From NCBI RefSeq assembly GCF_001984155.1, contig NZ_MTQO01000035.1, positions 62,001-126,000 of the forward strand: 64,000 nucleotides of DNA, written 5' to 3'. Within the stretch, counting starts at the first letter, position 1. Every line of letters begins with the position of its first letter. Below, piece by piece: positions 49,293-64,000 of this stretch. The translations under genes were made by a program, and so were the position numbers. The stretch is from Actinosynnema sp. ALI-1.44. GTDB taxonomy: Bacteria; Actinomycetota; Actinomycetes; Mycobacteriales; Pseudonocardiaceae. The notes under the pieces were generated by a model, which worked only from the letters and a program-made list of their open reading frames with translations, was not told the DNA's origin and ran no database searches.

Positions 49293-49321
49293 GATCTCTT
49301 CCAAGCCAGTCACCTCCCTAT

Positions 49322-49374
49322 GACGAGACAGCGCCCCGAAATGTGAGCCTCACATTTCACGGGGCCGCGTCGTC
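49322..49374. promoter_or_regulatory. Mirror-image divergent ECF41 promoters
   Basis: On the plus strand CCTCACA (49348-49354) is followed after exactly 16 bases by CGTC (49371-49374). On the minus strand GCTCACA (49348-49342) is also followed after exactly 16 bases by CGTC (49325-49322). ECF41 promoters are known as TGTCACA-N16-CGTC. The two -35 elements overlap in a palindrome with arms GAAATGTGAG and CTCACATTTC (49338-49358). Confidence 0.85.
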
Positions 49375-49414
49375 GGACTACCGCAAGCACATCCGACATG
49401 GAGGAGACAATCAC

Positions 49415-49915: not shown

Positions 49916-49921
49916 CAAGCG

Positions 49922-49961
49922 GGAAGCCGCCTTGGGTGCGGGGATGCCCAAGGCGGCTTCC
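49922..49961. terminator. Bidirectional terminator hairpin
   Basis: GAAGCCGCCTTGGG (49923-49936) and CCCAAGGCGGCTTC (49947-49960) form a 14-bp stem, extended by one more pair on each side. It lies between the convergent CMD and sugar epimerase genes and would serve both. Confidence 0.85.
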
Positions 49962-49975
49962 TCTCGTCGAACGCG

Positions 49976-50824
49976 TCAGAACCTGAGGTTGGCCAGGTAG
50001 TCGAAGCCGGTCTTGGCCGTCACGAGCGCGTCGGTCGGCTCGTCGTGCTCGACGATGAACTGGTCGATGCCCTCGTGCCAGGTGCGGCGGAAGATGGTCC
50101 CGAAGTCGATCACGCCCTTGCCGGGGTCGACCATCTTGCCGTCCTTGGTGCGGTCCTTCACGTGGTAGTGCAGGACCCGGCCGTAGTTCTCGTAGACGAG
50201 CCAGACCGGGTCGGCACCGGCGTGCACGGCCCAGAACAGGTCGATCTGCAGGTGCACGTTGCGGTGGGTCGTGCCCTTGGTGATCAGGTCCCAGGGGCGC
50301 TGGCCCTCCACCTTGCGGAACTCGTGGTCGTGGTTGTGGTAGCCGAGGGTGAACCCGGCTTCCCGGATGGTCTTGCCCGCCGCTTCCAGGCGCGTGGCGA
50401 AGGATTTCCACTCGGCCGCGGTCCCGTGGTTCTCGTACGGGTGCACCAGTTTCTGGTTGCCCAACGTCTTCGCGTCGGCGATCAGCTTGTTGAGGTCGTC
50501 ACCGATGTTGATGTGCGACGACGGCGCCTGGATGTGGTATTTGTCCAACAGCTTGCGGAACTCCGCCGCGCTGCGGCCGTACGTTCCCGCCAGTTCCACG
50601 CGCTGGTAGCCGATGTCGGCCAGCGCGGAGAGCGTGCCCTCCAGGTCCTTCTGCATGTTCGAGCGCAGGGTGTAGAGCTGGATGCTGATCTTGTCGCGGG
50701 GAATCCGCAGTTTGGGACGTGACGACGCCGCTGCCGCCGTCCCCGGCAACGCCACGGCTGCGACACCCGCCGCGACACCTGCTGCGGCGGCGCCGCGCAG
50801 CATGGACCTACGGGACAGTTCCAT
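49976..50824 (-). CDS. Tat-exported sugar isomerase/epimerase (xylose isomerase-like TIM barrel)
   Basis: A 282-residue protein with a Tat signal (MELSRRSMLRGAAAAGVAAG, in part: SRRSMLRGAAAAG) and an AP-endonuclease-2/xylose-isomerase-like TIM barrel. Metal-site segments are LGYHNHDHEFRK (His ligands), LQIDLFWAVHAGADP (Asp) and HYHVKDRTKDGK (His). The family includes sugar epimerases and inosose dehydratase-like enzymes; export suggests it acts on extracellular or periplasm-like space sugars. It is the last gene of the leftward cluster, 10 bp after the upstream gene. Confidence 0.88.
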   Translation of the reverse strand: MELSRRSMLRGAAAAGVAAGVAAVALPGTAAAASSRPKLRIPRDKISIQLYTLRSNMQKDLEGTLSALADIGYQRVELAGTYGRSAAEFRKLLDKYHIQAPSSHINIGDDLNKLIADAKTLGNQKLVHPYENHGTAAEWKSFATRLEAAGKTIREAGFTLGYHNHDHEFRKVEGQRPWDLITKGTTHRNVHLQIDLFWAVHAGADPVWLVYENYGRVLHYHVKDRTKDGKMVDPGKGVIDFGTIFRRTWHEGIDQFIVEHDEPTDALVTAKTGFDYLANLRF

Positions 50825-50834
50825 GGTGATCCCT

Positions 50835-51842
50835 TCAGGACTTCTTCGAGCTGAACGCCGCGTCGAAGGCCGCCGCGGGCGGGTCGAAAACCAGGTTCCG
50901 GACGAACTTCACCGCTTCCTCCGCGCCACGCAGCCGGTCCATGCCCGCGTCCTCCCACTCCACGGAGATCGGACCGGAGTAGGAGATCGCGTTCAGCGCG
51001 CGGAAGCACTCCTCCCACGGCACGTCGCCGTGCCCGGTCGACACGAAGTCCCAGCCGCGCCGGGGATCTGCCCACGCCAGGTGCGAGCCCATCCGGCCGT
51101 TGCGGCCGTCGAAGCGCTTCTTGGTGTCCTTGCAGTCCACGTGGTAGATCCGGTCGGCGAAGTCGAGGATGAAGCCGACCGGGTCGAGGTCCTGCCAGAC
51201 GAAGTGCGACGGGTCCCAGTTCAGCCCGAACGCGGGCCGGTTGTCCACCGCGTCCAGGGTTCTGCGCGTCGTCCAGTAGTCGTAGGCGATCTCCGACGGG
51301 TGCACCTCGTGCGCGAACCGCACGCCTTCTTCGTCGAACACGTCCAGGATCGGGTTCCAGCGGTCGGCGAAGTCCTGGTAGCCGTCGTCGATGACGTCCT
51401 GGCCGACCGGCGGGAACATCGCCACGTACTTCCAGATCTTCGACCCGGTGAACCCGACCACCGTGTCCACACCGAGTTTGCGGGCCGCGCGGGCGGTGTC
51501 GGCCAACTCCTTGGCGGCGCGCTGGCGCACGCCTTCGGCGTCGCCGTCGCCCCAGATCCGGGCTGGCACGATGTTCTGGTGCCGGAAGTCGATCGGGTCG
51601 TCGCAGATCGCCTGGCCGACCAGGTGGTGGGAGATCGCCCAGACCTTGAGCCCGTACTGGGACAGGATCTTGTGCCGACCGGCCACGTAGTCCGGTTCGG
51701 ACAGTGCGCGGTCCACTTCGAAGTGGTCGCCGGAGCAGGCGATTTCGAGGCCGTCGTATCCCCAGCTCGACGCGAGCCGGCACACCTCATCGAACGGCAG
51801 GTCCGCCCACTGCCCGGTGAACAGCGTGATCGGTCGGCTCAT
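50835..51842 (-). CDS. Cytoplasmic sugar phosphate isomerase/epimerase (TIM barrel)
   Basis: A 335-residue TIM-barrel enzyme. Metal ligands are likely in VRFAHEVHPSEIAYD (Glu), FGLNWDPSHFVWQ (Asp/His), YHVDCKDTKKRF (Asp/His) and PISVEWEDAG (Glu). Members of this subgroup commonly lie beside Gfo/Idh and ThuA genes and act on keto-sugars. ATG 51842 follows the EboF-like stop by two bases; an overlapping GTG at 51845 is an alternative. It shows no signal peptide. Confidence 0.88.
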   Translation of the reverse strand: MSRPITLFTGQWADLPFDEVCRLASSWGYDGLEIACSGDHFEVDRALSEPDYVAGRHKILSQYGLKVWAISHHLVGQAICDDPIDFRHQNIVPARIWGDGDAEGVRQRAAKELADTARAARKLGVDTVVGFTGSKIWKYVAMFPPVGQDVIDDGYQDFADRWNPILDVFDEEGVRFAHEVHPSEIAYDYWTTRRTLDAVDNRPAFGLNWDPSHFVWQDLDPVGFILDFADRIYHVDCKDTKKRFDGRNGRMGSHLAWADPRRGWDFVSTGHGDVPWEECFRALNAISYSGPISVEWEDAGMDRLRGAEEAVKFVRNLVFDPPAAAFDAAFSSKKS

Positions 51843-51844
51843 CA

Positions 51845-53242
51845 CTATCCTTTCAGAACTTCGGCCATCGGCTTGATGTCTTGCAGGCCGAGCAACAACG
51901 AGTGCACGTCGACGGCGGACAGCTTGTCCCTGCCGGGATCACGGCTGTCCGAGCACAGCAGCACCGGCCCGTCCTGCGGCGAGTCGGGCAGCCTACCGTG
52001 CGATCCGCGCACGAGTTTCCCGTCCAGCGGCACGACGTTCATCGCGTACCGCAGGCCCGCTTTCTTCTTCAGCAGGTTCAGCCCGGCCTTGGCCTTCACC
52101 AGCGGGTCGGCCGGGTTGAAGAACAGCTCGGCCGGGTCGTAGCCGGGCTTGCGGTGGATCTCCACTCCCCTGGCGAAGTCCGGCGCGCGGTCGTCGTCGA
52201 GCCAGTAGTAGTAAGTGAACCACGCGTCCGGCTCGGCCACCACCACAAGATCACCGGCGCGCGGGTGGTCGAGTCGGTACCGGGCCTGTTCGACGCGGTC
52301 GAGGACCATGTCCACGCCGGGCTGCCGCTCCAGCACGTCCTTGACCCGCGCCAGATCGTCGGTGTCCTGCACGTACACGTGCGCGACCTGGTGGTCGGCC
52401 ACGGCGAAGGCCCTGGACACCCACGGGTCCAGGTATTCCATACCGTCCTGTGTGTACACCTCGAGCAGGCCTTCGGCGCGCAGGGTGCGGTTGACGTCGA
52501 TCGGCCTGCTGGCGTTGGTGATCCCGTACTCGCTCAACGCCACCACGGTCGCCCCGGCGGCTTTCGCGTCCTGCACCAGCGGCGCCAGCGCGGCGTCGAC
52601 GTCGCGGGCCGCCTCGACCGCCTGCGGCGCGTCCGGTCCGAACCGCTGCAGGTCGTAGTCCAGGTGCGGGACGTACACCAGCAGCAGGTCCGGCTTGTGC
52701 CCGGACAGGATCCGGCGGGACGCGTCGACGATCCACTTGCTCGACGCGATCGACGCGGTCGGGCCCCAGTACTGGAACAGCGGGAAGTCGCCGAGCGCCT
52801 CGGTGAGTTCCTCGTGCAGCCGGACCGGCCGCGTGTAGCAGTCCGGCTCCTTCTTGCCGTCCGCGTAGTAGATCGGCCGGGGTGTGACGGTCAGGTCCGT
52901 CGTGGCGCCCATGGCGTACCACCAGCACACGTTCGCCGAGGTGTAGCCGGGGTTCGCCGCTCGGGCGACCTCCCACAGCTTGTCCCCGCCGACCAGTTTG
53001 TTGTGCTGGCGCCAGAGGAACACCTCGCCGAGTTCCCTGAAGTACCAGCCGTTGCCGACGATGCCGTGCTCGGCGGGCATCTTGCCGGTGAGGAACGTCG
53101 ACTGCGCGCTGCACGTGACCGCGGGCAGCACCGTGCCCAGTTCCGCCTGCCAGCCGTTGTCGGCGATCCGGGAGACGTTCGGCATGTGCTTGAGCAGTCG
53201 CGGTGTCATCCCGACGATGTCGATGACGACAAGGGGCTTCAT
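51845..53242 (-). CDS. eboF: EboF-like nucleotide pyrophosphatase/phosphodiesterase
   Basis: A 465-residue alkaline phosphatase-superfamily enzyme. Metal-site segments are LVVIDIVGMTPRLL (Asp), PAVTCSAQSTFLTGKMP (Thr/Ser nucleophile region), HLDYDLQRFGPDAP (Asp/His) and VALSEYG. No signal peptide is visible. In ebo clusters the phosphodiesterase EboF is encoded with EboE and is required for export of the pathway product in cyanobacteria (known for scytonemin). Its start overlaps the eboE stop by four bases. Confidence 0.8.
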   Translation of the reverse strand: MKPLVVIDIVGMTPRLLKHMPNVSRIADNGWQAELGTVLPAVTCSAQSTFLTGKMPAEHGIVGNGWYFRELGEVFLWRQHNKLVGGDKLWEVARAANPGYTSANVCWWYAMGATTDLTVTPRPIYYADGKKEPDCYTRPVRLHEELTEALGDFPLFQYWGPTASIASSKWIVDASRRILSGHKPDLLLVYVPHLDYDLQRFGPDAPQAVEAARDVDAALAPLVQDAKAAGATVVALSEYGITNASRPIDVNRTLRAEGLLEVYTQDGMEYLDPWVSRAFAVADHQVAHVYVQDTDDLARVKDVLERQPGVDMVLDRVEQARYRLDHPRAGDLVVVAEPDAWFTYYYWLDDDRAPDFARGVEIHRKPGYDPAELFFNPADPLVKAKAGLNLLKKKAGLRYAMNVVPLDGKLVRGSHGRLPDSPQDGPVLLCSDSRDPGRDKLSAVDVHSLLLGLQDIKPMAEVLKG

Positions 53243-54324
53243 GAGACCTCCAGTGTCAGGTGGCCTTCTGCCCAGGCCAGCTCCGCTGCTATCCCGTCTA
53301 CCAGGTCCTGCCGGTGCCGGTCAGGCAGAACGTTCCACGTGTAGGTCTCCACTTCCACGATCCGGTCACCGGACACGGTGTTGAGCACCTCGGTCAGCAC
53401 GTCCGTCGTGGATCCCAGTGGCTCGTCGGGCTCGGCGTGCAGCGGCACGTGGAAGTGCACCCGCCACGGCCCGACCGCGGGCAGCGTCTCCAGCGCCTCG
53501 GGCAGGTCGTCGGCGGTCAGGATGGTCCCGCACGGCGCCAGCTCCCGGACCTGGTGCAGGTAGCGCGGTTCCGCGAACTCCGCCAGCTGCTCGTAGGCGG
53601 CTTTCGGGTCCTCGACGTGCAACGCCGCCGATGCCTGCACCTTGACGATCTCCAGCCCCGCGGCCTCGATCGAGCGGACGGTCTCGACCGGGTCGGCGAA
53701 GGACACCGCCAAGTGACAGGTGTCCAGGCACAGTCCGATGTACTCCGGGTCCACGCGCGGCGCCAGCCATTCGACCGTGTCCGCCACTGTGTCCAGGACG
53801 CACCCCGGCTCGGGTTCGACGGCGAGCTTGATCAAGCGCTCGGTCGACCGCAGGGTCCGGGTCAGCTCGGCGAGCGCGTCCAGCGCCGCCGTGTCGTCGG
53901 CCTCGGTCCACGGTTCGCGCCAGCCGAGCGGGAGCGTGGAGATCCCGCCGTACGCGGCGTCGCCGGGCAGCAGGCCGTTCAACACCGTGACGCAGTCCAC
54001 TGTGTACTGGAGTCGCCGCCGGTCGGTCCACCGCGGCTCGTACACAGCCAGTTTCACGACATCGGCGTGGAACCCGCCGTAGGGGAACGCGTTCATGGTG
54101 ATCACGTCGAGACCACGCGCGTCCAGTTCCGCACGGAACCTCCGCAGATCGGCCGGGGACGAGGCCAGTCCTGCCGCCACGTCGGCAGCCAGCCACAGAC
54201 CCAGCCCGAGCCGGTCCGCGCCCAGCTTCTGCCTGACCGGGACGGCGTACGCGTCCAGTTGGCCGAGAATCCCCGGCAGGTCCTCGGCCGGGTGCACGTT
54301 CGTGCAGTAGCACAACCTGGTCAC
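53239..54324 (-). CDS. eboE: EboE-like metabolite traffic protein
   Basis: A 361-residue TIM-barrel protein of the EboE group. It starts TRLCYCTNVHPAEDLPGILGQLDAY (in part: LCYCTNVHPAEDLPGIL), a signature of EboE. It continues with VITMNAFPYGGFHA and LCLDTCHLAVSFADP, which provide sugar-isomerase-type metal ligands. The cognate function is in trafficking or processing of a metabolite, shown genetically in cyanobacteria. GTG 54324 overlaps the EboB stop (GTGA). An upstream longer frame is rejected. Confidence 0.85.
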   Translation of the reverse strand: MTRLCYCTNVHPAEDLPGILGQLDAYAVPVRQKLGADRLGLGLWLAADVAAGLASSPADLRRFRAELDARGLDVITMNAFPYGGFHADVVKLAVYEPRWTDRRRLQYTVDCVTVLNGLLPGDAAYGGISTLPLGWREPWTEADDTAALDALAELTRTLRSTERLIKLAVEPEPGCVLDTVADTVEWLAPRVDPEYIGLCLDTCHLAVSFADPVETVRSIEAAGLEIVKVQASAALHVEDPKAAYEQLAEFAEPRYLHQVRELAPCGTILTADDLPEALETLPAVGPWRVHFHVPLHAEPDEPLGSTTDVLTEVLNTVSGDRIVEVETYTWNVLPDRHRQDLVDGIAAELAWAEGHLTLEVS

Positions 54325-55184
54325 TGGCGTCCGCCTCGCAGCACCGAGTTGCCCGCGAACGTTTCCGTCGACGGGGCGAAGCCGGGCAGTTCGTCGAGCA
54401 CCAGCCGTCCGCTCTGGCCGTAGAAGTCGACCGGGTTCTGCCACAGCACCTTGTCCACGTCCGCCTCGGTGAACCCCGCTTCGAGCATCTGGCGCGCGGT
54501 CTTGTACGTCTTCAACGGATCCGAGCGGCCCCAGTCGGCGGCCGAGTTCACCAGGACCTTGTCGGTGCCGTACTCCTTGAGGATCACGACCATCCGGTCC
54601 TCGTCCATCTTGGTGTCCGGGTAGATGGAGAACCCCATCCAGCAGCCGGATTCCTTGACGGTCCTGACCGTGACCTCGTTGAGGTGGTCGACCGCGACGA
54701 ACTCCGGTGCGATCCCGGACTCCCTGACCACGTCCAGCGTCCGGTGTGTGCCGGCGAGCTTGTCGCGGTGCGGCGTGTGCACGAGCGCGGGCAGTTCGTG
54801 CTCAACGGCCATCGCGAGCTGCCGGGCGAAGGCGTCGTCCTCTTCCGGCGTCATCGAATCGTAGCCGACCTCGCCGACCGCGACCACGCCGTCCTTGGCG
54901 AGGTAACGCGGCAGGATGTCCAGGACCGGTGTGCAGCGCGGGTCGTTGGCTTCCTTCGGGTTCAGCGCGATGGTGCAGTGGTGGCGGATGCCGAACTGGG
55001 CCGCGCGGAACCGTTCCCAGCCGATCAGCGCGTCGAAGTAGTCCTTGAAGGACTCCACGCCGGTGCGGGGCTGGCCCAGCCAGAAAGCCGGTTCGACGAT
55101 GGCGCGGACACCGGCGGCGAACATCGCCTCGTAGTCGTCGGTGGTGCGTGAGGTCATGTGGATGTGCGGGTCGAAGATGCGCAT
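54321..55184 (-). CDS. eboB: EboB-like TatD-family metal-dependent hydrolase
   Basis: A 287-residue amidohydrolase. The metal site begins with DPHIHM (His7/His9) and continues with VAVGEVGYD (Glu), LPALVHTPHRDK (His) and FVAVDHLNE (His), with Asp in VNSAADWGRSDP. It is cytoplasmic. In ebo clusters EboB is the TatD-like hydrolase; its substrate is unknown. It is translationally coupled to both neighbours by one- to four-base overlaps. Confidence 0.88.
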   Translation of the reverse strand: MRIFDPHIHMTSRTTDDYEAMFAAGVRAIVEPAFWLGQPRTGVESFKDYFDALIGWERFRAAQFGIRHHCTIALNPKEANDPRCTPVLDILPRYLAKDGVVAVGEVGYDSMTPEEDDAFARQLAMAVEHELPALVHTPHRDKLAGTHRTLDVVRESGIAPEFVAVDHLNEVTVRTVKESGCWMGFSIYPDTKMDEDRMVVILKEYGTDKVLVNSAADWGRSDPLKTYKTARQMLEAGFTEADVDKVLWQNPVDFYGQSGRLVLDELPGFAPSTETFAGNSVLRGGRQ

Positions 55185-56626
55185 CAGCTGTTCTCCAAGA
55201 GACGTACGGCGTCGGCAGGGACTTCACGGCCGGCCGCTCTGCGCTCGTCGGCGTAGTCGGCGATCATGCGGAGCAGTTCCGCGTCGGTCCGGCGTTCCAC
55301 GGCCGCGACCGCGGCCAGCGGGACGCCGACGAACAGGCACTTGAGCACGCCGTGCCGCCATGAGTGCTGGTCGAGGTGCTCACCGGCGAACGGCCCGAGC
55401 GCGGCCGCGACCAGCCGGATGTCGTTGGTTCGCAACGCGTCCTGGACGAGCTCCAGCCCGGCCTTGACCGCAGGCGCGGGCAGCGATGTCAGTCCACGCA
55501 GGACGCCACGGCGTTCCGCGTCGTCGCCGTAGCGGTAGAGCTCGGTGACTTCCCCGACGAGCTCGTCCGGCGGCAGCACGTCCGCGAGTGCGGCGAGCAA
55601 ACGTATGCGCGCCAGATCGTCCACGGTTCCGTGGATCAGGCCCTGCGGGTCGTTTTCCGGCCGCATGGCCGAACGACCGACCTTCCGGCCGACCGCCGGG
55701 AAAAGCGACCGGATGGCGGCCGGTTCGGACCGGACCCGCCGTTCGGCGTCGACCAACCAGGGATGATCCACTTCATCCACCCACTCCGAGTCCGTGACCG
55801 GCATGGCGGCCTCCAGCGCGGCGATCGCCCGGCGCGCGACGTCGGGCGCGGCGTGGCTGTGCCGCGGCAGTTCCACGGCCGCCACGCCGGTGTAGCCGAC
55901 TTCGGCGAGCGCGGCCAGGGTGCCGGGCAGATCGAGCTCGCCCTCGCCGAACTCGAGGTGTTCGTGCACACCCGGCCGCATGTCGTCGAGCTGCACGTTC
56001 ACCAGCAGCCCGGCGGCTCGCCGCACGCAGTCGGCCGCGTTCTCCGGTTCGACCGCGACGCAGTGCCCGACATCGAGGGTGATGCCCAACAGCTCCGGGT
56101 TGCCCAGCTCGTCCCGCAGCGCCAACGCCTGCGTCAGGTGCTGGACGTACATCCCCGGTTCGGGTTCCAGCCCGATCCGCACCCCCCTGCGGTCGGCTTC
56201 CTCGAGCACTCTCGCGACGCCGCCGAGCATCCGCTGGTGCGCCGTCGCGTCATCCACATCGGACGGCTTGATGCCAGACCAGAACGACACGCAGTCCGCG
56301 CCGAGGCCGTCGGCGATCCGGATCGCCCGGTGCAGGAAGTCGATCCGCACGTCGATGTGGTCGGACACCAGCGTCGGGTGGTGTTTGCGGGCCGGGTCGA
56401 GCAGGTAGCGGGCACCGGTCTCGACCACGCACCGCAGGCCGAGCACCGACAGCAGCGCGGCCACCCGGTCGGTCTCCTTGGCCACGTCCGCGGCGAACGG
56501 GTCAAGGTGGTGGTGGTCCAGCGTCAGCGCCACCGAGGTGTACCCGAGCTCCGCGATCATCCGCAGCGCGTCGTCCAGGCGGTGGTTGGCGAACCCGTTG
56601 GTGCCGTAGCCGAGGTGGAAGCTCAT
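55184..56626 (-). CDS. eboA: TIM-barrel sugar isomerase fused to EboA domain
   Basis: A 480-residue fusion. Residues 1-~275 form a xylose-isomerase-like TIM barrel (MSFHLGYGTNGFANHRLDD; metal segments LGLEPEPGMYVQHLT, in part: VRIGLEPEPGMYVQHL, and LGITLDVGHCVAVEP). Residues ~300-480 form the EboA domain: arrays of helices with LARIRLLAALADVLPPDE and the hallmark HSWRHGVLKCLFVGVPLAAV. Known EboA proteins are separate from such barrels. ATG 56626 overlaps the EboC stop by four bases. The fusion suggests that EboA escorts or modifies the sugar handled by the barrel. Confidence 0.85.
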   Translation of the reverse strand: MSFHLGYGTNGFANHRLDDALRMIAELGYTSVALTLDHHHLDPFAADVAKETDRVAALLSVLGLRCVVETGARYLLDPARKHHPTLVSDHIDVRIDFLHRAIRIADGLGADCVSFWSGIKPSDVDDATAHQRMLGGVARVLEEADRRGVRIGLEPEPGMYVQHLTQALALRDELGNPELLGITLDVGHCVAVEPENAADCVRRAAGLLVNVQLDDMRPGVHEHLEFGEGELDLPGTLAALAEVGYTGVAAVELPRHSHAAPDVARRAIAALEAAMPVTDSEWVDEVDHPWLVDAERRVRSEPAAIRSLFPAVGRKVGRSAMRPENDPQGLIHGTVDDLARIRLLAALADVLPPDELVGEVTELYRYGDDAERRGVLRGLTSLPAPAVKAGLELVQDALRTNDIRLVAAALGPFAGEHLDQHSWRHGVLKCLFVGVPLAAVAAVERRTDAELLRMIADYADERRAAGREVPADAVRLLENS

Positions 56627-57465
56627 GTCGGGCTCACCTTCCCGGCCAGCTTGCGCGCCAACGGCAACGCGGCCGACAGCACACCGGCTCCGAGCAGCGA
56701 CCCGCGCCGGGCGGCCAGCGCCGCCTGCAACGGGACCATGCCGTGGATACCGGCCATGGTGGCTTTCCGCACGGTCGGCCCGGACGGGTCCCTGGTCGCC
56801 GCGAGCTGGGCGGACCCGACGTTGGCCGCGTACATCCCGCCGAAGGCCAGTGCCCCCAGCCGGTGCCGCCACGACGTGGACTTGCCCACCACAGCGGCGG
56901 TCGTGGCCACGGCTGTTCCGGTCAACGCCGCCTTGGCAACGATGTCAGAAGCGCCGTGGACTTCCCCGCGCGACAACGCGGTGAGCCCCAGCGTATGCCC
57001 CGCCACGACCGTGGCCGCGGGCAGCGCCGAGCGGGAACCACCGGCACCGAGCATCACGTCCAGCCCCCGGCACAACGCCATCCCGGCCGGACCAGCCACA
57101 GTGGACTTCAGAACCAGGTCGTACGCCCACACGGCCGCGGCGAGGGGCACTGCGGCCTTCAGCGAGCGGCCGTACGCCGCCAGCGCGAGACCGGCGGCGG
57201 TCAACCCACCGGCCACAGCCAGCGCTTGGTTGGGTGTGATCCGGCCGGACGGGATCGGCCGCTCGGGCCGCTCGACCGCGTCAAGCGACCGATCGGACCA
57301 ATCGTTGAGCGCCATTCCGGACCAGTAGAACGCGACCGACGCCAACGGCAACGCCAGACGCCTGCCGCGCAACGGGTTCCCCGCCGCGGCCGCCCCCGCG
57401 AGCGTGTCCCCCAGCACCGATAACGCCGCCGGTGCCCGCACCAGCTCCACGTACGCGTTCGTCAC
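56623..57465 (-). CDS. eboC: EboC-like UbiA prenyltransferase (SCO3242 family)
   Basis: A 280-residue membrane enzyme with about eight hydrophobic helices. The first Asp-rich motif of UbiA enzymes is NDWSDRSLDAVERPERPIPSG (in part: NDWSDRSLDAVERPERP), which binds the Mg-prenyl diphosphate. The second motif is degenerate around AYDLVLKST. It would attach a prenyl chain to a soluble acceptor. It lies between the inositol-phosphate synthase-like gene and the TIM-EboA fusion with four-base overlaps on both sides, implying a shared pathway. Confidence 0.88.
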   Translation of the reverse strand: MTNAYVELVRAPAALSVLGDTLAGAAAAGNPLRGRRLALPLASVAFYWSGMALNDWSDRSLDAVERPERPIPSGRITPNQALAVAGGLTAAGLALAAYGRSLKAAVPLAAAVWAYDLVLKSTVAGPAGMALCRGLDVMLGAGGSRSALPAATVVAGHTLGLTALSRGEVHGASDIVAKAALTGTAVATTAAVVGKSTSWRHRLGALAFGGMYAANVGSAQLAATRDPSGPTVRKATMAGIHGMVPLQAALAARRGSLLGAGVLSAALPLARKLAGKVSPT

Positions 57466-58610
57466 AGGTCAGCCGCCCATTCGTTGAGCATCCGGGTCTG
57501 TTCGGCGAACCGGTGCTCGTCGGTGCCCAGGGGGTCCTTGAAGAAGAACGCGAGCGCGGCCAGTGCGCCGCTCTGACCGTCCGCGTGGGCGGCGGCCACG
57601 AGCCGGGCCAGGTCGAGCACGAGCGGGGCCGCCAGCGCCGAGTCGTAGCCGTCCCAGGTGAACTGGAGGCTCATCTTGGCGCCGAGGAAGCCTTCGAAGG
57701 ACACGTAGTCCCACGCGATCTTGCGTTCGGCCAGGTCCGGCACGTTGTCGATGTGCAGCGGCGCGGTGACGTCGCCGATCAGCCGGGCCAGGCCGCGCGC
57801 CTTGGACTCCAGTTTGCCCCTGGCCTGCTCGGGATCGGCCAGGTTGGCGCCGTCACCGCCGCCGAGCAGGTTCGTGCCCGCCCATGACCGGACGTCCAGC
57901 GCACGCGCGACGAACATCGGCGCGAGCACTGTGCGCAACAGGGTCTCCCCCGTCTTGCCGTCCGCGCCCGCGTACGGCAGGCCCTGGCGGCGGGCCAGTT
58001 CCACCAACGCGGGCATCTTGATTCCCGGGGACGGGGTAAAGTCGACGTACGGGCTGCTGGACGTCAGCGCCGCGTACGCGCCGAGCGAGCTCGGCGGCAG
58101 AACCGTCCGTTGTGGATCGTTCAGTGCCTGGACGAGCAGGTCCAGGTCGTCGTGCTCCGGCAACGCGGGCACGGGCGGCTCGGTCGAGGTCACGTTGACC
58201 ACGACCACCCGGTCCAGCGAGTGCCGGGCACGGAAGTCCGCGATGTCCGCGACCAGCCGGGCGGCCGCCTCCGCCTGCGAGCCGGTGTGCGACACCGGGT
58301 GGTACCCGCTCCGCAGTTCGGTGTCCACCGCACGCAGCCCGTCGGCCACGGCGGTGAACACCGAATGGGGGATGAGGCCGGACTCGGCGAGCTGTTCGGC
58401 CCGTTTGTCCAGCGGTATCGAAACGATGTCGTGACCGCCGACGATGATCTCGTCCCAGGTCGGTAACACCGTGTGATCCATGTCGAGCCGCTCGGTGACA
58501 CACCCGACCGGCCTGACCAGCCCGGCCCGCAAAGCGAGCAGACCGGTGATCGCGGTGGTCGCGACGGAGCCGCGTGCCCCCATCAGCCATAGTCCGCATC
58601 GTTGCCGCAT
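57462..58610 (-). CDS. Inositol-3-phosphate synthase-family cyclase
   Basis: A 382-residue NAD-dependent enzyme of the myo-inositol-phosphate synthase family. The Rossmann start is LWLMGARGSVATTAITGLLAL (in part: LMGARGSVATTAITGL). Other conserved parts are WDEIIVGGHDI, VVVVNVTSTEPPVP, GADGKTGETLLRTVLAP and FLGAKMSLQFTWDGYDSALAAPLV (in part: GAKMSLQFTWDGYDSALAA). The family cyclises a hexose phosphate to inositol phosphate. In classical ebo operons a 3-dehydroquinate-synthase-like cyclase (EboD) is found, and none is present here. This enzyme may take its place. ATG 58610 is chosen; ATG 58625 is an alternative. Confidence 0.88.
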   Translation of the reverse strand: MRQRCGLWLMGARGSVATTAITGLLALRAGLVRPVGCVTERLDMDHTVLPTWDEIIVGGHDIVSIPLDKRAEQLAESGLIPHSVFTAVADGLRAVDTELRSGYHPVSHTGSQAEAAARLVADIADFRARHSLDRVVVVNVTSTEPPVPALPEHDDLDLLVQALNDPQRTVLPPSSLGAYAALTSSSPYVDFTPSPGIKMPALVELARRQGLPYAGADGKTGETLLRTVLAPMFVARALDVRSWAGTNLLGGGDGANLADPEQARGKLESKARGLARLIGDVTAPLHIDNVPDLAERKIAWDYVSFEGFLGAKMSLQFTWDGYDSALAAPLVLDLARLVAAAHADGQSGALAALAFFFKDPLGTDEHRFAEQTRMLNEWAADL

Positions 58611-58633
58611 TGGCCTCAACCTCATTCCCGCGA

Positions 58634-58675
58634 ACGGCCGAGGTGCTCCCGCGTCGTGTAGAACACCTCGGCCGT
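58634..58675. terminator. Terminator between the ThuA gene and the ebo-type operon
   Basis: ACGGCCGAGGTG (58634-58645) and CACCTCGGCCGT (58664-58675) form a 12-bp stem with an 18-base loop, three bases after the stop of the large ThuA gene. It separates that transcript from the downstream operon starting at 58610. Confidence 0.7.
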
Positions 58676-58678
58676 GGT

Positions 58679-61600
58679 TCAGCTTCCGGAACTCGCCCTC
58701 GGCAGTGCCGGACCGCCTTCGAGCGAGCCGATCACCGCACCGGCATCCCTGACCAGGGTGGACCGGACGTCGGAGTCGGCGACCTTAGCCGGATCATTCG
58801 CGAGTTCCCCGAACTTTCGCAACTGCTTGACCGCCTTTGCGTCATCCCCGGCCGCCTCGGCCTTGCGTGCCTTGGACAGCTGACCGGACAAGCTGACAAA
58901 AGCGGACAAGGACAGCCGGTTGGTCGCGCGGAACCGCGTGATCAGCTGATCGATGTCGCGCATCGACGTCGTCGTGGCGAACGTCAGCTTCTGCTCGGTC
59001 CGGTTGCCCGCCTTGTCAAGAGCTGTCACCGAGAGGTTCTGCACACCCAGTGGCAGCTGGTACAACGACGTGACCTGACCGGACTGGATGGGGGTGGTGT
59101 TCAGCAACCCCGTGACCGAGGCGATGCCGGACGTCGCGTCTTCGGCGTGCCACTTGACAACCACGTCCGTAGCGTCTCCGTAGACGCGGCCGTCGGCCAG
59201 GCCCGACACCAGCAACGTCGGCTTGGCCGCGTCGATCAGGATCGTCGCGGCCTTGTCCGGCTCCACGTTGCCGTCCTTGTCGTGCGAGCGGTACAGCAGC
59301 GTGTGCTGCCCGTCCCCGGTGACCACGACCGGCTGGGTGTACGGCGTCCAGGCGCCGTTGTCGAGCTTGTACTCGGTGCGCGCCACACCGGAGCCCTCGT
59401 CGGTCGCGGCCAGTTCGACCGGGACCTGACCGGGGTGCCAGCCGCCCGGGTTGGCGAAGTTGGCGACGGTCACCGGCGGTGTCGTCTCCAACTCCTTGAT
59501 CCGGACGTCGCGGAACCACACGTCGTCGCCGTTGCCGTGGTTCTGCAGGCCGATGAAGCCCTGCGTGAGGTCGCGGTTCGGGTCCGTGGACACGAAGTCG
59601 TTGATCAGCACGCCGTTGAGCCACACCTGGATGGTCTGGCCGCGGACGATGATCTCGTAGGCGTTCCACTGGCCCGGCGGCTTGAGCGCCGCGTCCCGCT
59701 TGGCGATGTCGGCCGACTGGAACGAGTAGACCGACCCGGTCGTGCGGTCCGGTGCGTCGGTCGCGTCGATCTGGATCTCGTAGCCCTGGTTGACCGCGAC
59801 CCACGGGTCATTGCCGGGCTCCGGGTAGCCGACGAACACACCGGAGTTGTCGTCGCCCGCGACCTTCCAGTCCAGCTTGAGGCTGTAGGCGTTGAACTCC
59901 TCCTTGTGCGACAACAGACCCATCCCGCCTTCGGACAGGATCGTGCAGTCCGCCTGCTGGGCGAACCGGCCGGGGCCGGACTGCTTCCAGTTGCCGAGAC
60001 TGGCCTGCGTGCCATCGTAGAGGCTGCGGTACCCGGTTTCCGGCTGCGTCGGCTGGCACGCGGGCGGCTGCGCCACACCGGCGCCGTCGAACCGCAGGGC
60101 GTCCACATCGAACAGTCCGCCCGCGCCGGTTCCCTGGAAGACCAGGTACAGCGGTTTGGTGCCCCCCGGATCGGCCAACGGCTTGACCGGCAGGTCGACG
60201 TAGTTGTCCCAGCCACCGGTGTTGGCCACGTCGAACGTCTGCAGCAGTGGGCCGTCGACCGCGCCGGAGCGCACCTCGACCTTGCCGCCCGCGCCGCCCG
60301 AGGACACCCGCAGCCCGAGCCCGGTGATCCCGGACAGGTTGGTCGGTGTGAACGCCAGCCAGTCGCCCGGTTCGATGTAGCCGACCCGCTTGCCGCCGCT
60401 GGCGCCCGCCTGCGGGACGACCTGGACGCCGCTCATGCTGGAGAAGTACTCCGCCTGCTTGAGCTTGGTCTGCATGATGTTCTCGCCCTCACCGAGCAGC
60501 GGCGGGACAGTGCCCTTGCCCTTGTCGGTGTAACGCGCGTTGATCACGCCGAAGATGTTGACGTCCTCGCCGTGCCCGCCCTCGCCCGGCGTCTCGATCA
60601 CGCCTTCACAGCCGAACGCCTCGCTCAGCGGGTGGCCGTGGTTGTCGTGGCCGAGGATGTAGCGGACGTGCACCTTCGAGCAGTCGATCTCGCCGTCTTC
60701 CGGGTCGGTGACCTTGACCTTGAACGGGACCTTGTCGCCGAACTTGAAGAACCCGCCGTTGACCGGGGCCTCGACCACGACCGTCGGCGCGGTGTTGCCG
60801 ACCGTGATGGTCACGTTGGCCACGCCGACGAGCCCGACCGAGTCCGTCACCGAGAGCTTCGCGGTGAACTGGCCTTCCTGGGTGTAGGTGTGGGTCACCG
60901 GACCAGCGGAGGTCGAATCGACCGTGCCGTCGTTCTCGAAGTCCCACGCGTAGGTGACCGGCTGGCCGTCGGGGTCGTTCGTCCCGGCCGGGTTGAAGTT
61001 CACCGTCAGCGGGGCGTGCCCGGATGTCTTGTCGGCGGCCAGTTTCACCACCGGCGTGCGGGTGCCCTTGGTGTAGTCGATCCGGTACACCGCCGACTCC
61101 GGTGAACCGCCGAAGTAGCCGGTGCCGTAGTCCAGCACGTACAACGCGCCGTCCGGGCCGAACTCGATGTTCATCGGCCGGACGAGGTCCATCGAGTTGA
61201 AGAACGGCTTGATGTCACCGCGTTCGCCGTTCGCCCCTACCGTGATCTCCTTGATCCAGCCACGGTCCCACTCGTAGGCGAAGTTCTTCTTGTCGAAGTA
61301 CGCCGGGAACTTCGTCTTCGACGGGTTGTCGGCGTCGAAGTGGTACGTCGGGCCGCCCATCGGCGACTCGCCGCCCGAACCGAACTCCGGCACCGAACCA
61401 CCGTCATAGGGAATCCACGCGGCCTGTGCCGGTGGCAGGTCGACCAGGCCCGTGTTGTGCGGGCTTTCGTTCTTCGGTGCGGCGCAGTTGAAGGCCGCCC
61501 CGGACTGGCCGGTCGCGAAGTCGTAGTCGACGAACGGCTGGTTGTCCCCGACGCAGTACGGCCACCCGTAGTTGCCCGGCGCCTTGATCAGGTTGAACTC

Positions 61601-63211
61601 GACCGTGCCGCCAGGGCCACGGGCCGGGTTGGCCGCGCCCGCGTCCGGACCGTAGTCACCGAGGTGGATCCAGCCGGTCCGCTTGTCCACCGCGAACCGG
61701 AACGGGTTGCGGAAACCCATCGCGTAGATCTCCGGCTTGGTCTTCTCGGTGCCCGGCGCGAACAGGTTGCCCGCCGGGATCGAGTACGAGCCGTCGGCGT
61801 TGACCTTGATCCGCAGGATCTTGCCGCGCAGGTCGTTGGTGTTGGCCGAGGTGCGCTGCGCGTCGTAGCCGGGGTTGCGGGTCGGCCGCTCGTCGATCGG
61901 CGTGAACCCGTCGCTGGCGAACGGGTTCGAGTCGTCGCCCGTGCTCATCAGCAGGTTGCCCTGCGCGTCGAAGTCGATCTCGCCGCCGACGTGGCAGCAC
62001 AGGCCGCGGGTCGCCGGGGTGGCCAGGATCTTCTGCTCCGAGGCCAGGTCCAGCATCCCGTCGTCGCCGAGTTTGAAGCGCGACAACTGGTTGTGCCCGT
62101 TGAACGGCTCGAAGTCCGCTGCGGTGCCGTCGTTCGGCGCGTCACCGGCCGGGGTGTTCAACGGCGGCGCGTAGTAGATGTAGATCCACTTGTTGGTCGC
62201 GAAGTCCGGGTCGATCGCGACGCCCTGCAGGCCGTCCTCGTCGTGGTTGTAGACGGGGATCTTGCCGATCTGCTTGGTGGTCGCGTCCGGAGTGGTCAGG
62301 TAGACCGCGCCGTCACGGGACGTGTGCAGCACACGCCGGTCGGGCAGGACCGCGAGGGCGATCGGCTCCCCGGTCTTCTCCTCGCCCTTGGCGAGCGTGA
62401 TCTGGTCGAAGTCGGAGTCGACCGGCTGCTCGTCCGGGCCCGGCGAGCAGTTGCCCGGCAACACACCGGCGGCGTACTTGATCCCGCCGACCAGGTGCTT
62501 GCGGAACGCGTCCTCGCTGTAGGACTCCTTGGTGTGCCCGCCGCCGGTGTACCACGAACGGCCGCGATTGGCGTTGTGGCACCAGGCGATCGGGTGGTCG
62601 CCCATCGCGCCGTCGCCGGGCTGGTAGCTCTTCTCGTCCAAAGTAGCCAGTACTTTGACGTTCGCCCGCGGGTTGGTGCGGTAGTTGTACCACTCGTCGG
62701 TGCGCACCCACTTGTTCGGCACACCGGCCGTCGACGGGTGCGAGTGGTCCGCCACGTCGACCGTCGCCTGCTGGATGTGCGGGTGTGACTTGAAGTAGGC
62801 GCCGACGAGCTCGCCGTACCACGGCCAGTCGTACTCGGTGTCCGACGCGGCGTGCACCCCCACGTAACCGCCGCCGTCGTTGATGTAACGCTCGAAAGCC
62901 GCCTGCTGGTCGGCGTTGAGCACGTCACCCGTGGTCGAGAGCCACACCACGGCGGCGTACTGGTCCAGGTTCGCGTCGGTGAACGCCCCCGCGTCCTCGG
63001 TCGTGAACACCTCGAAGTTGTTCTGCTGCCCCAGTTGCTGGATCGCGGCGATCCCGTCGGGGATCGAGTCGTGCCGGAAGCCGGTCGTCTTGGAAAAGAC
63101 CAGGATGTGCGGCTGGTCGGGGTGCGCGGCCGCAGGCAGGGCGCTCGCCACCCCCAGTCCTGTGGTCAGTGCCACAGCGGCTGCGCACACGCGCAGGGTT
63201 AACCGTCCCAC
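58679..63211 (-). CDS. Giant secreted ThuA/PQQ sugar dehydrogenase/PKD/CBM6/DUF1080 protein
   Basis: A 1510-residue secreted protein with signal peptide (1-29). Domains in order: ThuA glutamine-amidotransferase-like (34-250; GGGYVGVHAASDTEYDWP); glucose/sorbosone dehydrogenase-type six-blade propeller (266-715; EDGLQGVAIDPDF, IYAMGFRNPFRFAVD) that would use PQQ; PKD (720-805; VTYAWDFENDGTVD); Ig-like (808-880); CBM6-like (910-1042; GYIEPGDWLAFTPTNLSG); DUF1080 3-keto-disaccharide hydrolase (1060-1241; LKLDWKVAGDDNSGVFVGYP); OmpL47-type beta repeats (1244-1412); helical tail. No sortase motif. Likely oxidises and cleaves sugars outside the cell. Confidence 0.9.
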   Translation of the reverse strand: MGRLTLRVCAAAVALTTGLGVASALPAAAHPDQPHILVFSKTTGFRHDSIPDGIAAIQQLGQQNNFEVFTTEDAGAFTDANLDQYAAVVWLSTTGDVLNADQQAAFERYINDGGGYVGVHAASDTEYDWPWYGELVGAYFKSHPHIQQATVDVADHSHPSTAGVPNKWVRTDEWYNYRTNPRANVKVLATLDEKSYQPGDGAMGDHPIAWCHNANRGRSWYTGGGHTKESYSEDAFRKHLVGGIKYAAGVLPGNCSPGPDEQPVDSDFDQITLAKGEEKTGEPIALAVLPDRRVLHTSRDGAVYLTTPDATTKQIGKIPVYNHDEDGLQGVAIDPDFATNKWIYIYYAPPLNTPAGDAPNDGTAADFEPFNGHNQLSRFKLGDDGMLDLASEQKILATPATRGLCCHVGGEIDFDAQGNLLMSTGDDSNPFASDGFTPIDERPTRNPGYDAQRTSANTNDLRGKILRIKVNADGSYSIPAGNLFAPGTEKTKPEIYAMGFRNPFRFAVDKRTGWIHLGDYGPDAGAANPARGPGGTVEFNLIKAPGNYGWPYCVGDNQPFVDYDFATGQSGAAFNCAAPKNESPHNTGLVDLPPAQAAWIPYDGGSVPEFGSGGESPMGGPTYHFDADNPSKTKFPAYFDKKNFAYEWDRGWIKEITVGANGERGDIKPFFNSMDLVRPMNIEFGPDGALYVLDYGTGYFGGSPESAVYRIDYTKGTRTPVVKLAADKTSGHAPLTVNFNPAGTNDPDGQPVTYAWDFENDGTVDSTSAGPVTHTYTQEGQFTAKLSVTDSVGLVGVANVTITVGNTAPTVVVEAPVNGGFFKFGDKVPFKVKVTDPEDGEIDCSKVHVRYILGHDNHGHPLSEAFGCEGVIETPGEGGHGEDVNIFGVINARYTDKGKGTVPPLLGEGENIMQTKLKQAEYFSSMSGVQVVPQAGASGGKRVGYIEPGDWLAFTPTNLSGITGLGLRVSSGGAGGKVEVRSGAVDGPLLQTFDVANTGGWDNYVDLPVKPLADPGGTKPLYLVFQGTGAGGLFDVDALRFDGAGVAQPPACQPTQPETGYRSLYDGTQASLGNWKQSGPGRFAQQADCTILSEGGMGLLSHKEEFNAYSLKLDWKVAGDDNSGVFVGYPEPGNDPWVAVNQGYEIQIDATDAPDRTTGSVYSFQSADIAKRDAALKPPGQWNAYEIIVRGQTIQVWLNGVLINDFVSTDPNRDLTQGFIGLQNHGNGDDVWFRDVRIKELETTPPVTVANFANPGGWHPGQVPVELAATDEGSGVARTEYKLDNGAWTPYTQPVVVTGDGQHTLLYRSHDKDGNVEPDKAATILIDAAKPTLLVSGLADGRVYGDATDVVVKWHAEDATSGIASVTGLLNTTPIQSGQVTSLYQLPLGVQNLSVTALDKAGNRTEQKLTFATTTSMRDIDQLITRFRATNRLSLSAFVSLSGQLSKARKAEAAGDDAKAVKQLRKFGELANDPAKVADSDVRSTLVRDAGAVIGSLEGGPALPRASSGS

Positions 63212-63367
63212 TGGTAAGTTCTCCTTGCTCGCAGCGGTTGCGTGACCGTGAGAGGGGAAGTTCCAACTCCTTTCGAACTGGTCGGTCTGTGGGCGACGAC
63301 GCTGCCCGGCCGGGCTGCACCCCGACGCGGGCAGCGTCCCACTCGTGCTTTTTCAGGACACCGTCGC

Positions 63368-64000
63368 TCAGGACACGGGAGTCCACTGGGACTCGTTGCC
63401 CGCACTGGCCTCCACCGCACCGAGGACCTGCTGAACCTGCAGGCCGTCGGCGAAGCTCGGCGCCGGATCGGTGCCGTCACCTATATGGGTGAGAAAATCG
63501 AACACCTCGTGGGTGAAGGTGTGTTCATAACCGATGATGTGGCCGGGTGGCCACCAGGCACCGACGTACGGGTGCGTCGCCTCGGTGATCAGGACCCGCC
63601 GGAACCCGGCGGTCTCGTCGGCGATCTCACCGTCGTAGTACGACAGCTCGTTCATCGACTCGAAGTCGAACGCCAGGCTGCCCTTCTCACCGTTGACCTC
63701 GAGGCGCATCGAGTTCTTGCGGCCGAGCGCGAACCGGGTCGCCTCGTAGGACGCCATCACGCCGGACGGGAACTTCCCGATGAACAACGCGGCGTCGTCC
63801 ACCGTGACGTCGTCGAGCCTGCCGTCCGGGTCACCCGCGATCGGTCGCTTGTGGACGAACGTCTCGGTCAGCGCGGACACGCCGGTGAGCTGCTCGCCGA
63901 GGACGAACTGCGACGCGTCGATGATGTGCGCGCCGATGTCGCCGAGCGCACCCGATCCCGCCTCTTCCTTGCGCAGCCGCCACGCCATCGGCGCGTTCGA
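63368..64000 (-). CDS. Gfo/Idh/MocA-family oxidoreductase (C-terminal part, start outside window)
   Basis: The visible 210 codons are the C-terminal domain of a Gfo/Idh/MocA dehydrogenase: GSGALGDIGAHIIDASQFV (the GDIGxHxxD signature), DVTVDDAALFIGKFPSGVMAS (in part: DDAALFIGKFPSGVMA) and a closing FADGLQVQQVLGAVEASA. The NAD-binding N-terminus lies beyond 64000. It is the first visible gene of the leftward cluster and ends 157 bp before the giant ThuA gene. A C3-oxidising sugar dehydrogenase would fit the neighbouring DUF1080 domain. The gap 63212-63367 holds no gene. Confidence 0.88.
   Translation of the reverse strand, partial: SNAPMAWRLRKEEAGSGALGDIGAHIIDASQFVLGEQLTGVSALTETFVHKRPIAGDPDGRLDDVTVDDAALFIGKFPSGVMASYEATRFALGRKNSMRLEVNGEKGSLAFDFESMNELSYYDGEIADETAGFRRVLITEATHPYVGAWWPPGHIIGYEHTFTHEVFDFLTHIGDGTDPAPSFADGLQVQQVLGAVEASAGNESQWTPVS

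What the first reader, a model, noticed from the sequence alone, without database searches (positions are those of the whole stretch)
49976..64000. Ebo-type metabolite cluster embedded between keto-sugar genes: candidate undescribed system
Six genes with one- to four-base overlaps encode an inositol-phosphate-synthase-family cyclase, EboC prenyltransferase, a TIM-EboA fusion, EboB, EboE and EboF. Around them, on the same strand, are a Gfo/Idh dehydrogenase, a secreted ThuA/PQQ dehydrogenase/DUF1080 protein and two TIM-barrel epimerases. The ebo genes are known for export of scytonemin precursor in cyanobacteria and for a bioactive factor in Pseudomonas; Gfo/Idh-ThuA-DUF1080-TIM sets belong to 3-keto-sugar metabolism. 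Their union suggests a pathway for making or exporting a prenylated cyclitol or sugar, or importing one after oxidation.
Basis: partly seen in the sequence, partly recalled or inferred. Interest (0 to 1): 0.9.

Follow-up and report, generated by a model that had tools for sequence, protein, structure and literature searches.

The report
Cyclitol-lipid genes tied to sugar oxidation
A block of bacterial genes that probably builds a lipid-tailed cyclic sugar alcohol sits, in many actinobacteria and in some salt-loving archaea and one further phylum, beside genes that seem to oxidise and take up sugars outside the cell, which hints at what this long-puzzling gene cluster works with.

Summary
Six packed minus-strand genes (an inositol-phosphate-synthase relative "MIPS", EboC, a TIM-EboA fusion, EboB, EboE, EboF) lie inside a 14-gene same-strand run with a ROK regulator and sugar ABC importer (beyond the window edge), Gfo/Idh, a secreted ThuA-GSDH-CBM6-DUF1080 protein, and two TIM barrels resembling a 2-hydroxy-3-keto-glucal hydratase and a 3-keto-glycoside beta-eliminase. 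The linkage is not chance: of 111 distinct actinobacterial loci 58 carry at least 3 of 9 keto-sugar parts within about 10 kb and 31 carry none, against 0 of 20 control loci with any. The hydratase relative co-occurs with EboC genome-wide (16 of 18 against 37 of 378). MIPS-type ebo genes lie beside such genes in 2 of 3 haloarchaeal plasmids and one Gemmatimonadota plasmid. MIPS and unrelated EboD changed places at least twice, so the slot's job is probably making a cyclitol. The commonest partner is a GSDH-type beta-propeller dehydrogenase (67 of 111). Best reading: the cassette makes a prenylated cyclitol serving the extracytoplasmic oxidative step. Product unknown; export of a metabolite remains a strong rival.

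The parts
63368..64000 (-). Gfo/Idh/MocA dehydrogenase (complete gene 63368-64525 in the own contig). Upstream, outside the window and on the same strand: binding protein 64577-65710, permease 65717-66730, ATPase 66727-68244, ROK regulator 68241-69485
58679..63211 (-). predicted secreted ThuA - GSDH (beta-propeller sugar dehydrogenase) - PKD - CBM6 - DUF1080 (3-keto-disaccharide hydrolase) - OmpL47-type/FIMAH protein, 1510 aa
57462..58625 (-). MIPS-family cyclase in the place of EboD; closest solved relative 1u1i (a MIPS); K224, K271, K275, K302, K363 kept in at least 97% of the 108 ebo-linked copies aligned (window included, duplicates not removed)
56623..57465 (-). EboC-like UbiA prenyltransferase of the SCO3242 family; its DxxDxxxD motif (D55, D58, D62) is invariant in 8 aligned sequences
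55184..56626 (-). xylose-isomerase-like TIM barrel fused to an EboA domain (480 aa)
54321..55184 (-). EboB, TatD-like metal-dependent hydrolase
53239..54324 (-). EboE TIM-barrel protein
51845..53242 (-). EboF, phosphodiesterase/nucleotide-pyrophosphatase family
50835..51842 (-). T1, TIM barrel related to 2-hydroxy-3-keto-glucal hydratase (8ro4) and to 2zds
49976..50824 (-). T2, TIM barrel with Tat-like N-terminus (SRRSMLR), related to the 3-keto-O-glycoside beta-eliminase AtOGE (8bvk) and to 8tcd

Best explanation
The locus is a conserved operon-like block that couples two modules. Module K takes glycosides apart outside and inside the cell: the secreted GSDH beta-propeller oxidises a glycoside, DUF1080 and the exported beta-eliminase-like T2 cleave the 3-keto product, the ABC importer takes up the keto-sugar or glucal, T1 hydrates it and Gfo/Idh reduces it (all inferred from families). 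Module E is a MIPS-type variant of the ebo cassette: the MIPS relative makes a cyclitol phosphate from a sugar phosphate, EboC attaches a prenyl chain in the membrane, and TIM-EboA, EboB, EboE and EboF trim it (inferred). I think the resulting prenylated cyclitol is a membrane-held helper (electron acceptor, cofactor or docking lipid) for extracytoplasmic oxidation by beta-propeller enzymes: GSDH here, ScyE-like proteins in some Streptomyces and in cyanobacterial scytonemin synthesis. Shown here: gene content, order, conserved linkage, co-occurrence and the repeated exchange of MIPS for EboD. Inferred: every reaction, the product and the helper role.
For: Core order I-C-tA-B-E-F in 98 of the 98 loci (of 111) that hold all six on one strand. 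Keto-sugar parts: 58 of 111 with 3 or more, 0 of 20 controls with any above the identity floors, in differing gene orders. Genome-wide co-occurrence of T1 with EboC: 23 of 23 against 10 of 37 relatives, 16 of 18 against 37 of 378 in the phylum. In 9 stretches around T1 from 8 EboC-bearing genomes where it is not beside ebo, Gfo is near T1 in 9, ABC genes in 6 and a propeller in 5. The GSDH-type propeller is the commonest part: 67 of 111, same strand as EboC in 64 of 67, and the only part in 11 of 17 one-part loci, against 79 GSDH matches in about 83 Mb of 11 genomes. ScyD/ScyE-family proteins lie directly upstream of MIPS-ebo in 2 of 4 Streptomyces plasmids read (not in 91, 92), with partial, below-cut-off ScyE-family matches in L093 and L117. 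Linkage also in Natronococcus and Halocatena and Gemmatirosa. MIPS/EboD changed at least twice on both EboB and EboF trees. In Nostoc the scyE and ebo deletions were biochemically identical (PMC6282210, results part 1).
Against: In Nostoc the scytonemin monomer stays in the cytoplasm in ebo mutants but reaches the periplasm in the scyE mutant (PMC6282210 discussion), which fits export better than a helper of ScyE. 31 of 111 loci have no keto-sugar part, 9 of 17 in the evenly drawn sample. 7 loci with 3 or more parts have no propeller within reach. Some ebo cassettes lie by NRPS or polyketide genes with no propeller annotated in the stretch. Only 2 of 9 EboD-type loci read have propeller or keto-sugar neighbours. 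T1 often occurs without EboC. PqqC is present in the own genome, so GSDH need not lack its usual cofactor. EboC is below the EboC equivalog cut-off.
Confidence: 0.36

Rival explanations
1. Export helper (the published reading): the ebo product is a lipid carrier that moves a small molecule across the membrane; here it would move a sugar- or cyclitol-derived compound out, and the keto-sugar genes finish or recycle it.
For: Monomer localisation in Nostoc ebo mutants (PMC6282210); ebo cassettes beside NRPS and polyketide genes; no exporter gene of its own among the 14 genes of the run.
Against: The linked transporter is of the RbsABC import type with a binding protein. No exported compound is known here.
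Confidence: 0.27
2. Biosynthesis of a secreted or envelope prenylated cyclitol (secondary metabolite or glycolipid); Gfo/Idh and the TIM barrels tailor the inositol ring, and the importer salvages it.
For: MIPS keeps its conserved lysines; EboC keeps the DxxDxxxD motif; T1, T2 and Gfo give weak matches to IolE and IolG models; a polyprenyl synthetase beside ebo in L067; an isoprenoid-cyclitol product was proposed in PMC5133447.
Against: T1 and T2 match solved 3-keto-glycoside enzymes with higher scores than the IolE model; T1 with Gfo and ABC genes occurs in genomes without EboC (4 of 11 stretches with the ABC set).
Confidence: 0.2
3. Neighbourhood by shared regulation or co-transfer only: ebo and module K serve separate purposes in the same sugar-rich habitat.
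For: 31 of 111 loci unlinked; T1 is found without EboC in 37 of 378 phylum genomes and 10 of 37 relatives.
Against: Linkage in differing gene orders and in three phyla of two domains; genome-wide co-occurrence even when unlinked.
Confidence: 0.13

Closest known systems
ebo cluster, EboD type (eustigmatophyte plastids, Nostoc scytonemin system, Pseudomonas EDB cluster)
   Same: EboA domain, EboB, UbiA-family EboC, EboE and EboF present and tightly clustered; cyclitol plus prenyl logic
   Different: EboD (sugar phosphate cyclase) replaced by an unrelated MIPS-family cyclase; EboA fused to a TIM barrel; EboC in the SCO3242 branch; linked to keto-glycoside and ABC genes
Actinobacterial SCO3242-type genes (SCO3242 and SCO3243 listed under the CDA cluster of S. 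coelicolor, PMC3610822, two passages seen)
   Same: MIPS gene next to SCO3242-family prenyltransferase; the TIM-EboA fusion in Actinobacteria is noted in one passage of PMC5133447
   Different: I found no description of the MIPS/EboD exchange, the keto-sugar linkage or the archaeal copies
Oxidation-elimination-hydration-reduction glycoside pathways (levoglucosan Lgd system, PMC7676230; AtOGE, PMC10628242; passages of both seen)
   Same: Gfo/Idh dehydrogenase, beta-eliminase-like and hydratase-like TIM barrels, sugar ABC importer
   Different: A secreted multidomain ThuA-GSDH-DUF1080 protein, an eliminase-like protein with Tat-like signal, and the ebo cassette in the same run

Membership tests
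ebo cluster (six genes eboA-F, PMC5133447) | EboE orthologue | tested here: met
   NF035939 421 bits, cut-off 250
ebo cluster (six genes eboA-F, PMC5133447) | EboA domain | tested here: met
   NF035938 161 bits, cut-off 50, as C-terminal half of a fusion; the EboA family model (cut-off 320) gives only 62 bits
ebo cluster (six genes eboA-F, PMC5133447) | EboC equivalog | tested here: not met
   NF035940 145 bits against 250; instead NF045897 SCO3242 family 364 against 260
ebo cluster (six genes eboA-F, PMC5133447) | EboD sugar phosphate cyclase | tested here: not met
   None in the run; MIPS family in its place; one DHQ-synthase-family match in the genome, on another contig
ebo cluster (six genes eboA-F, PMC5133447) | EboB and EboF | tested here: met
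   PF01026 46 against 27 and PF01663 224 against 23; EboB 52-60% identical to that of the EboD-type plasmid clusters read, 39-41% for the two Deinococcus; both genes can be placed in trees with EboD-type rows
myo-inositol-1-phosphate synthase | fold and conserved active-site residues | tested here: met
   Closest solved chain 1u1i, E 1.4e-62; K224, K271, K275, K302, K363 in at least 97% of 108 ebo-linked copies. Which residues are essential in MIPS is recalled, from no call
myo-inositol-1-phosphate synthase | converts glucose 6-phosphate to inositol phosphate | not testable with these tools
   A weaker relative (6k96) is a five-membered-cyclitol-phosphate synthase, so the ring made is uncertain
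3-keto-glycoside elimination/hydration pathway | beta-eliminase and hydratase relatives, Gfo/Idh and importer present together | tested here: met
   T2 vs 8bvk E 1.1e-26 with H134 and H189 kept; T1 vs 8ro4 E 9.4e-40; importer genes. Gfo vs levoglucosan dehydrogenase model 353 bits, below its cut-off 650
3-keto-glycoside elimination/hydration pathway | enzyme activities on 3-keto-glycosides | not testable with these tools
   Family resemblance only
PQQ-dependent glucose/sorbosone dehydrogenase | active-site His and Arg-Asn of the propeller | tested here: met
   HVGG and GFRNP in the window; 66 of 71 GSDH stretches over 300 aa keep H.GG and RNP. That these residues bind PQQ is recalled

The most novel reading that the evidence does not exclude
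The ebo cassette, in both its EboD and MIPS forms, makes a so far unknown prenylated cyclitol that serves as the membrane electron acceptor or cofactor of secreted beta-propeller oxidoreductases (GSDH-type and ScyE-type). In some lineages it may even stand in for PQQ: of 39 EboC-bearing genomes tested, 21 lack a PqqC match, and 12 of these carry a GSDH stretch at the ebo locus (one of the 12, L047, just under my 37% floor); 11 of the 12 keep the H.GG and RNP motifs.
Probability: 0.16. Interest if true: 0.88.

Novelty: new variant of a known kind. Interest (0 to 1): 0.63.

Why it matters
The ebo genes are widespread, are needed for the cyanobacterial sunscreen scytonemin (PMC6282210), and in the papers I saw have no agreed biochemical function. 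A recurring partner set in actinobacteria, haloarchaea and a Gemmatimonadota plasmid, plus repeated exchange of two unrelated cyclases in one slot, turns the open question into concrete tests: which cyclitol is made, what prenyl lipid results, and whether extracellular sugar oxidation depends on it. It also ties a young class of non-hydrolytic glycoside breakdown to a probable membrane-lipid pathway.

Tried and rejected
PQQ replacement as a general rule: rejected, because PqqC is in the own genome and the 7 other own-genus genomes and in 10 of 31 further EboC-bearing genomes, and because PqqC also occurs in EboC-less relatives (G008, G009, G013, G017, G047). It stays possible only for genomes without PqqC.

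Inositol catabolism (IolE/IolG) as the main reading of T1, T2 and Gfo: set aside, because solved 3-keto-glycoside enzymes score higher for T1 and T2.

EboD elsewhere in the own genome: not found. A replacement cyclase in loci without MIPS (12 of the 119 fetched loci): not seen. Ten genes from six of these loci were scanned: binding proteins, flavoproteins, a sigma factor, a GH3 enzyme, an inositol monophosphatase and others, no cyclase; the remaining loci were not scanned.

Counter-examples kept: Halomarina BND7 has a MIPS 65% identical to the Natronococcus copy among glycosyltransferases without ebo genes, so this MIPS branch is not exclusive to ebo. Haladaptatus has ebo-like and keto-sugar genes but no MIPS in the 27 kb read. 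Halobaculum has the MIPS-type core without keto-sugar genes. Azospirillum and one Deinococcus have sugar ABC genes a few kb from EboD-type ebo but no propeller or keto-sugar gene. Of the 54 plasmid records with an EboB match I read 18; the three weakest haloarchaeal hits (23-25%) were not read.

Control detail: above the identity floors 0 of 20 control loci hold a part; below them 4 of 20 have an ATPase and 1 of 20 a Gfo match at 28-31%.

Structure of TIM-EboA: never run, the machine was busy at every try. The own housekeeping Ino1 was taken in a wrong frame and redone (28% over 193 aa); the Gemmatirosa MIPS frame was wrong and right. An earlier count said Haladaptatus has MIPS; that is wrong.

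Detection is tblastn with identity floors of 45% (37% for T2, GSDH, DUF1080) within about 10 kb; 97 of 111 loci have about 20 kb held. Fisher values do not correct for relatedness.
Full report
1. WHAT IS THERE. The window is bases 62001-126000 of contig C30 of an 11.7-Mb genome. Same-genus genomes G001 and G005 have contigs of the same length as named records of Kibdelosporangium persicum and Actinocrispum wychmicini, so the host is Kibdelosporangium-like (Pseudonocardiaceae; the family name is recalled). On the minus strand, in transcription order: ROK regulator, ABC ATPase, permease, binding protein (all beyond 64000, read from the same contig), Gfo/Idh, the 1510-aa ThuA-GSDH-PKD-CBM6-DUF1080-FIMAH protein, MIPS, EboC, TIM-EboA, EboB, EboE, EboF, T1 and T2. 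Gaps run from -4 to +10 bases except 51 before Gfo/Idh, 156 before ThuA and 53 before MIPS. In 49000-64000 no sigma-70-like promoter match was found and terminator-like matches were near chance (8 found, 5.3 expected); the region upstream of the ROK gene was not scanned. T2 ends 662 bases before the next minus-strand gene I identified, a SigJ-type sigma factor.

2. THE SIX-GENE CORE IS A CONSERVED UNIT. NF045897 (EboC of the SCO3242 family) passes its cut-off in 23 of 60 relatives (32 have some match at E 0.001) and 17 of 396 phylum genomes. I read about 20 kb (less at contig ends) around the 22 relatives' loci other than the window's own, 17 phylum loci and 80 named loci. After dropping 8 that duplicate relatives' contigs, 111 distinct loci remain. 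All six core genes lie on one strand in 98 of 111, in the same order in 98 of those 98; MIPS lies within 700 bases of EboC on the same strand in 100 of 111. TIM and EboA read as one frame in 46 of the 119 loci before removal of duplicates and appear as two matches with stops between in 62.

3. THE LINKAGE TO KETO-SUGAR GENES. Nine parts were sought by tblastn with the window's proteins: ATPase, permease, binding protein, Gfo/Idh, ThuA, GSDH, DUF1080, T1 and T2. Relatives: 21 of 22 have 3 or more. Evenly drawn phylum sample: 6 of 17 have seven parts (all in one genus, g55), 2 have one, 9 have none. Named loci: 38 of 80 have 3 or more, 22 have none. Control stretches from 20 of the 22 relatives' genomes, far from ebo: 0 of 20 have any above the floors; below them 4 have an ATPase and 1 a Gfo match at 28-31%. 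All distinct loci: 58 of 111 have 3 or more, 31 have none. Gene order differs between linked loci (ThuA-GSDH behind EboF in Amycolatopsis L080, T1-T2 before MIPS in Haloechinothrix L116, an inverted Gfo-ABC set in Actinomadura L145), so the neighbours have been kept, or regained, through rearrangement. The 80 named loci lean towards linkage because of how they were found; the phylum sample does not.

4. CO-OCCURRENCE WITHOUT ADJACENCY. A T1 match at E 1e-80 or better is found in 23 of 23 EboC-bearing and 10 of 37 other relatives, and in 16 of 18 EboC-bearing (own genome included, one with a broken EboC match) and 37 of 378 other phylum genomes; Fisher p 4e-9 and 1.5e-13, not corrected for relatedness. 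EboC without T1: G207 and G408. In 9 stretches around T1 from 8 EboC-bearing genomes where T1 is not in the ebo stretch, Gfo is there in 9, ABC genes in 6 and a propeller in 5 (L174-L181 and L192; for G218 and G374 contig ends may have split a linked locus). T1 with Gfo and the ABC set also occurs in genomes without EboC (4 of 11 such stretches). The dependence looks one-sided: ebo of this type goes with T1 more than T1 with ebo.

5. OTHER PHYLA. On plasmids, EboB relatives led to haloarchaeal clusters EboB-TIM-UbiA-TIM with MIPS and EboF. Natronococcus and Halocatena have them beside a PQQ-type sugar dehydrogenase, TIM proteins and a BMP-type ABC importer, in Halocatena also ThuA. Haladaptatus has Gfo, DUF1080 and ABC genes but no MIPS in the stretch. 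Halobaculum has the MIPS-type core without keto-sugar genes. The three archaeal MIPS copies are 42-44% identical to the window's. Gemmatirosa (Gemmatimonadota, unannotated record) has matches to T2, a dehydrogenase, EboE, EboB, EboF, EboC, MIPS, TIM, T1 (57%) and two Gfo within about 16 kb. PMC5133447 speaks of bacteria of seven phyla; its text holds 'Actinobacteria' once and 'inositol' not at all.

6. MIPS AND EBOD SWAP. On trees of EboB (52 rows, 47 labelled) and EboF (53 rows, 46 labelled) the cyclase type changes at least twice, and holding EboD-type rows together is rejected (p-AU 9e-36 and 0.02; the EboB bootstrap had not settled, and the EboF value is modest). Gemmatirosa's EboB groups with the EboD-type Deinococcus pair, and the other 7 EboD-type rows join the actinobacterial MIPS-type rows apart from the archaeal ones. 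Two unrelated enzyme families exchanged in one slot argue that the slot's task is to make a cyclitol. The MIPS lysines are kept in window, three archaeal and Gemmatirosa copies.

7. WHICH PARTNER IS CENTRAL. The GSDH-type propeller is the commonest part: 67 of 111, against T1 56, Gfo 51 and ThuA, permease and binding protein 50 each. It is the sole part in 11 of 17 one-part loci and on EboC's strand in 64 of 67; 7 loci with 3 or more parts lack it within reach. Background: 79 matches in 11 genomes of about 83 Mb together (2 to 15 a genome), about one per million bases. In 2 of 4 Streptomyces plasmids read, a ScyD/ScyE-family protein takes the place in front of MIPS (the other two, lie by NRPS and polyketide genes); L093 and L117 have below-cut-off partial matches to that family at the same place. 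Among 9 EboD-type loci read, Salipiger has a PQQ-dependent dehydrogenase and Ketogulonicigenium two Gfo, a TIM protein and a dehydrogenase nearby; the other 7 show neither. This is the basis for reading ebo as a helper of extracytoplasmic propeller oxidoreductases. It is an inference. The published localisation of the scytonemin monomer speaks for export (PMC6282210), while the identical chemistry of scyE and ebo mutants fits either.

8. WHAT IS KNOWN AND WHAT IS NEW. Papers seen: PMC5133447 (outline, 3.2 part 1, 3.4, 3.7, passages), PMC6282210 (outline, results part 1, discussion part 1 and its last sub-section), PMC9235831 (outline and one section), PMC3610822, PMC9007349, PMC7676230, PMC10628242 and PMC8879130 (passages); others only as search listings. 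Searches listed no paper that I recognised as describing a MIPS-type ebo cluster with keto-sugar genes or in archaea; the listings of 67 and 129 were capped (15 of 27 and 15 of 59), and the library covers open PMC papers only. I file this as a MIPS-type variant of the ebo cluster, not a plain member: EboD is absent and the EboC equivalog cut-off is not reached.

9. VERDICT. The chemistry is unproven.

Noticed in passing
   Followed up: no
L202, L204, L212: EboD-type ebo genes in Aureibacter and Mycetohabitans, and an EboB-EboD pair in Gloeothece, lie close to a 'ferritin-like protein' and a long hypothetical protein: another recurring partner set.
   Followed up: no
L067:11796-13067: A polyprenyl synthetase gene lies beside the MIPS-type ebo genes, a possible source of the prenyl donor.
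   Followed up: no
L210: Streptomyces camelliae plasmid: MIPS-type ebo with ScyD/ScyE-family protein, aromatic prenyltransferase, methyltransferase, multicopper oxidase and cytochrome bd genes; looks like an oxidative biosynthetic cluster.
   Followed up: no
L055:10825-13950 (own contig beyond the window): A 1041-aa TPR-CHAT domain protein upstream of the run on the other strand.
   Followed up: no
L133:5879-6778: An inositol-monophosphatase-family gene near an ebo cluster in which no MIPS was found, in Streptomyces tailanensis.
   Followed up: no
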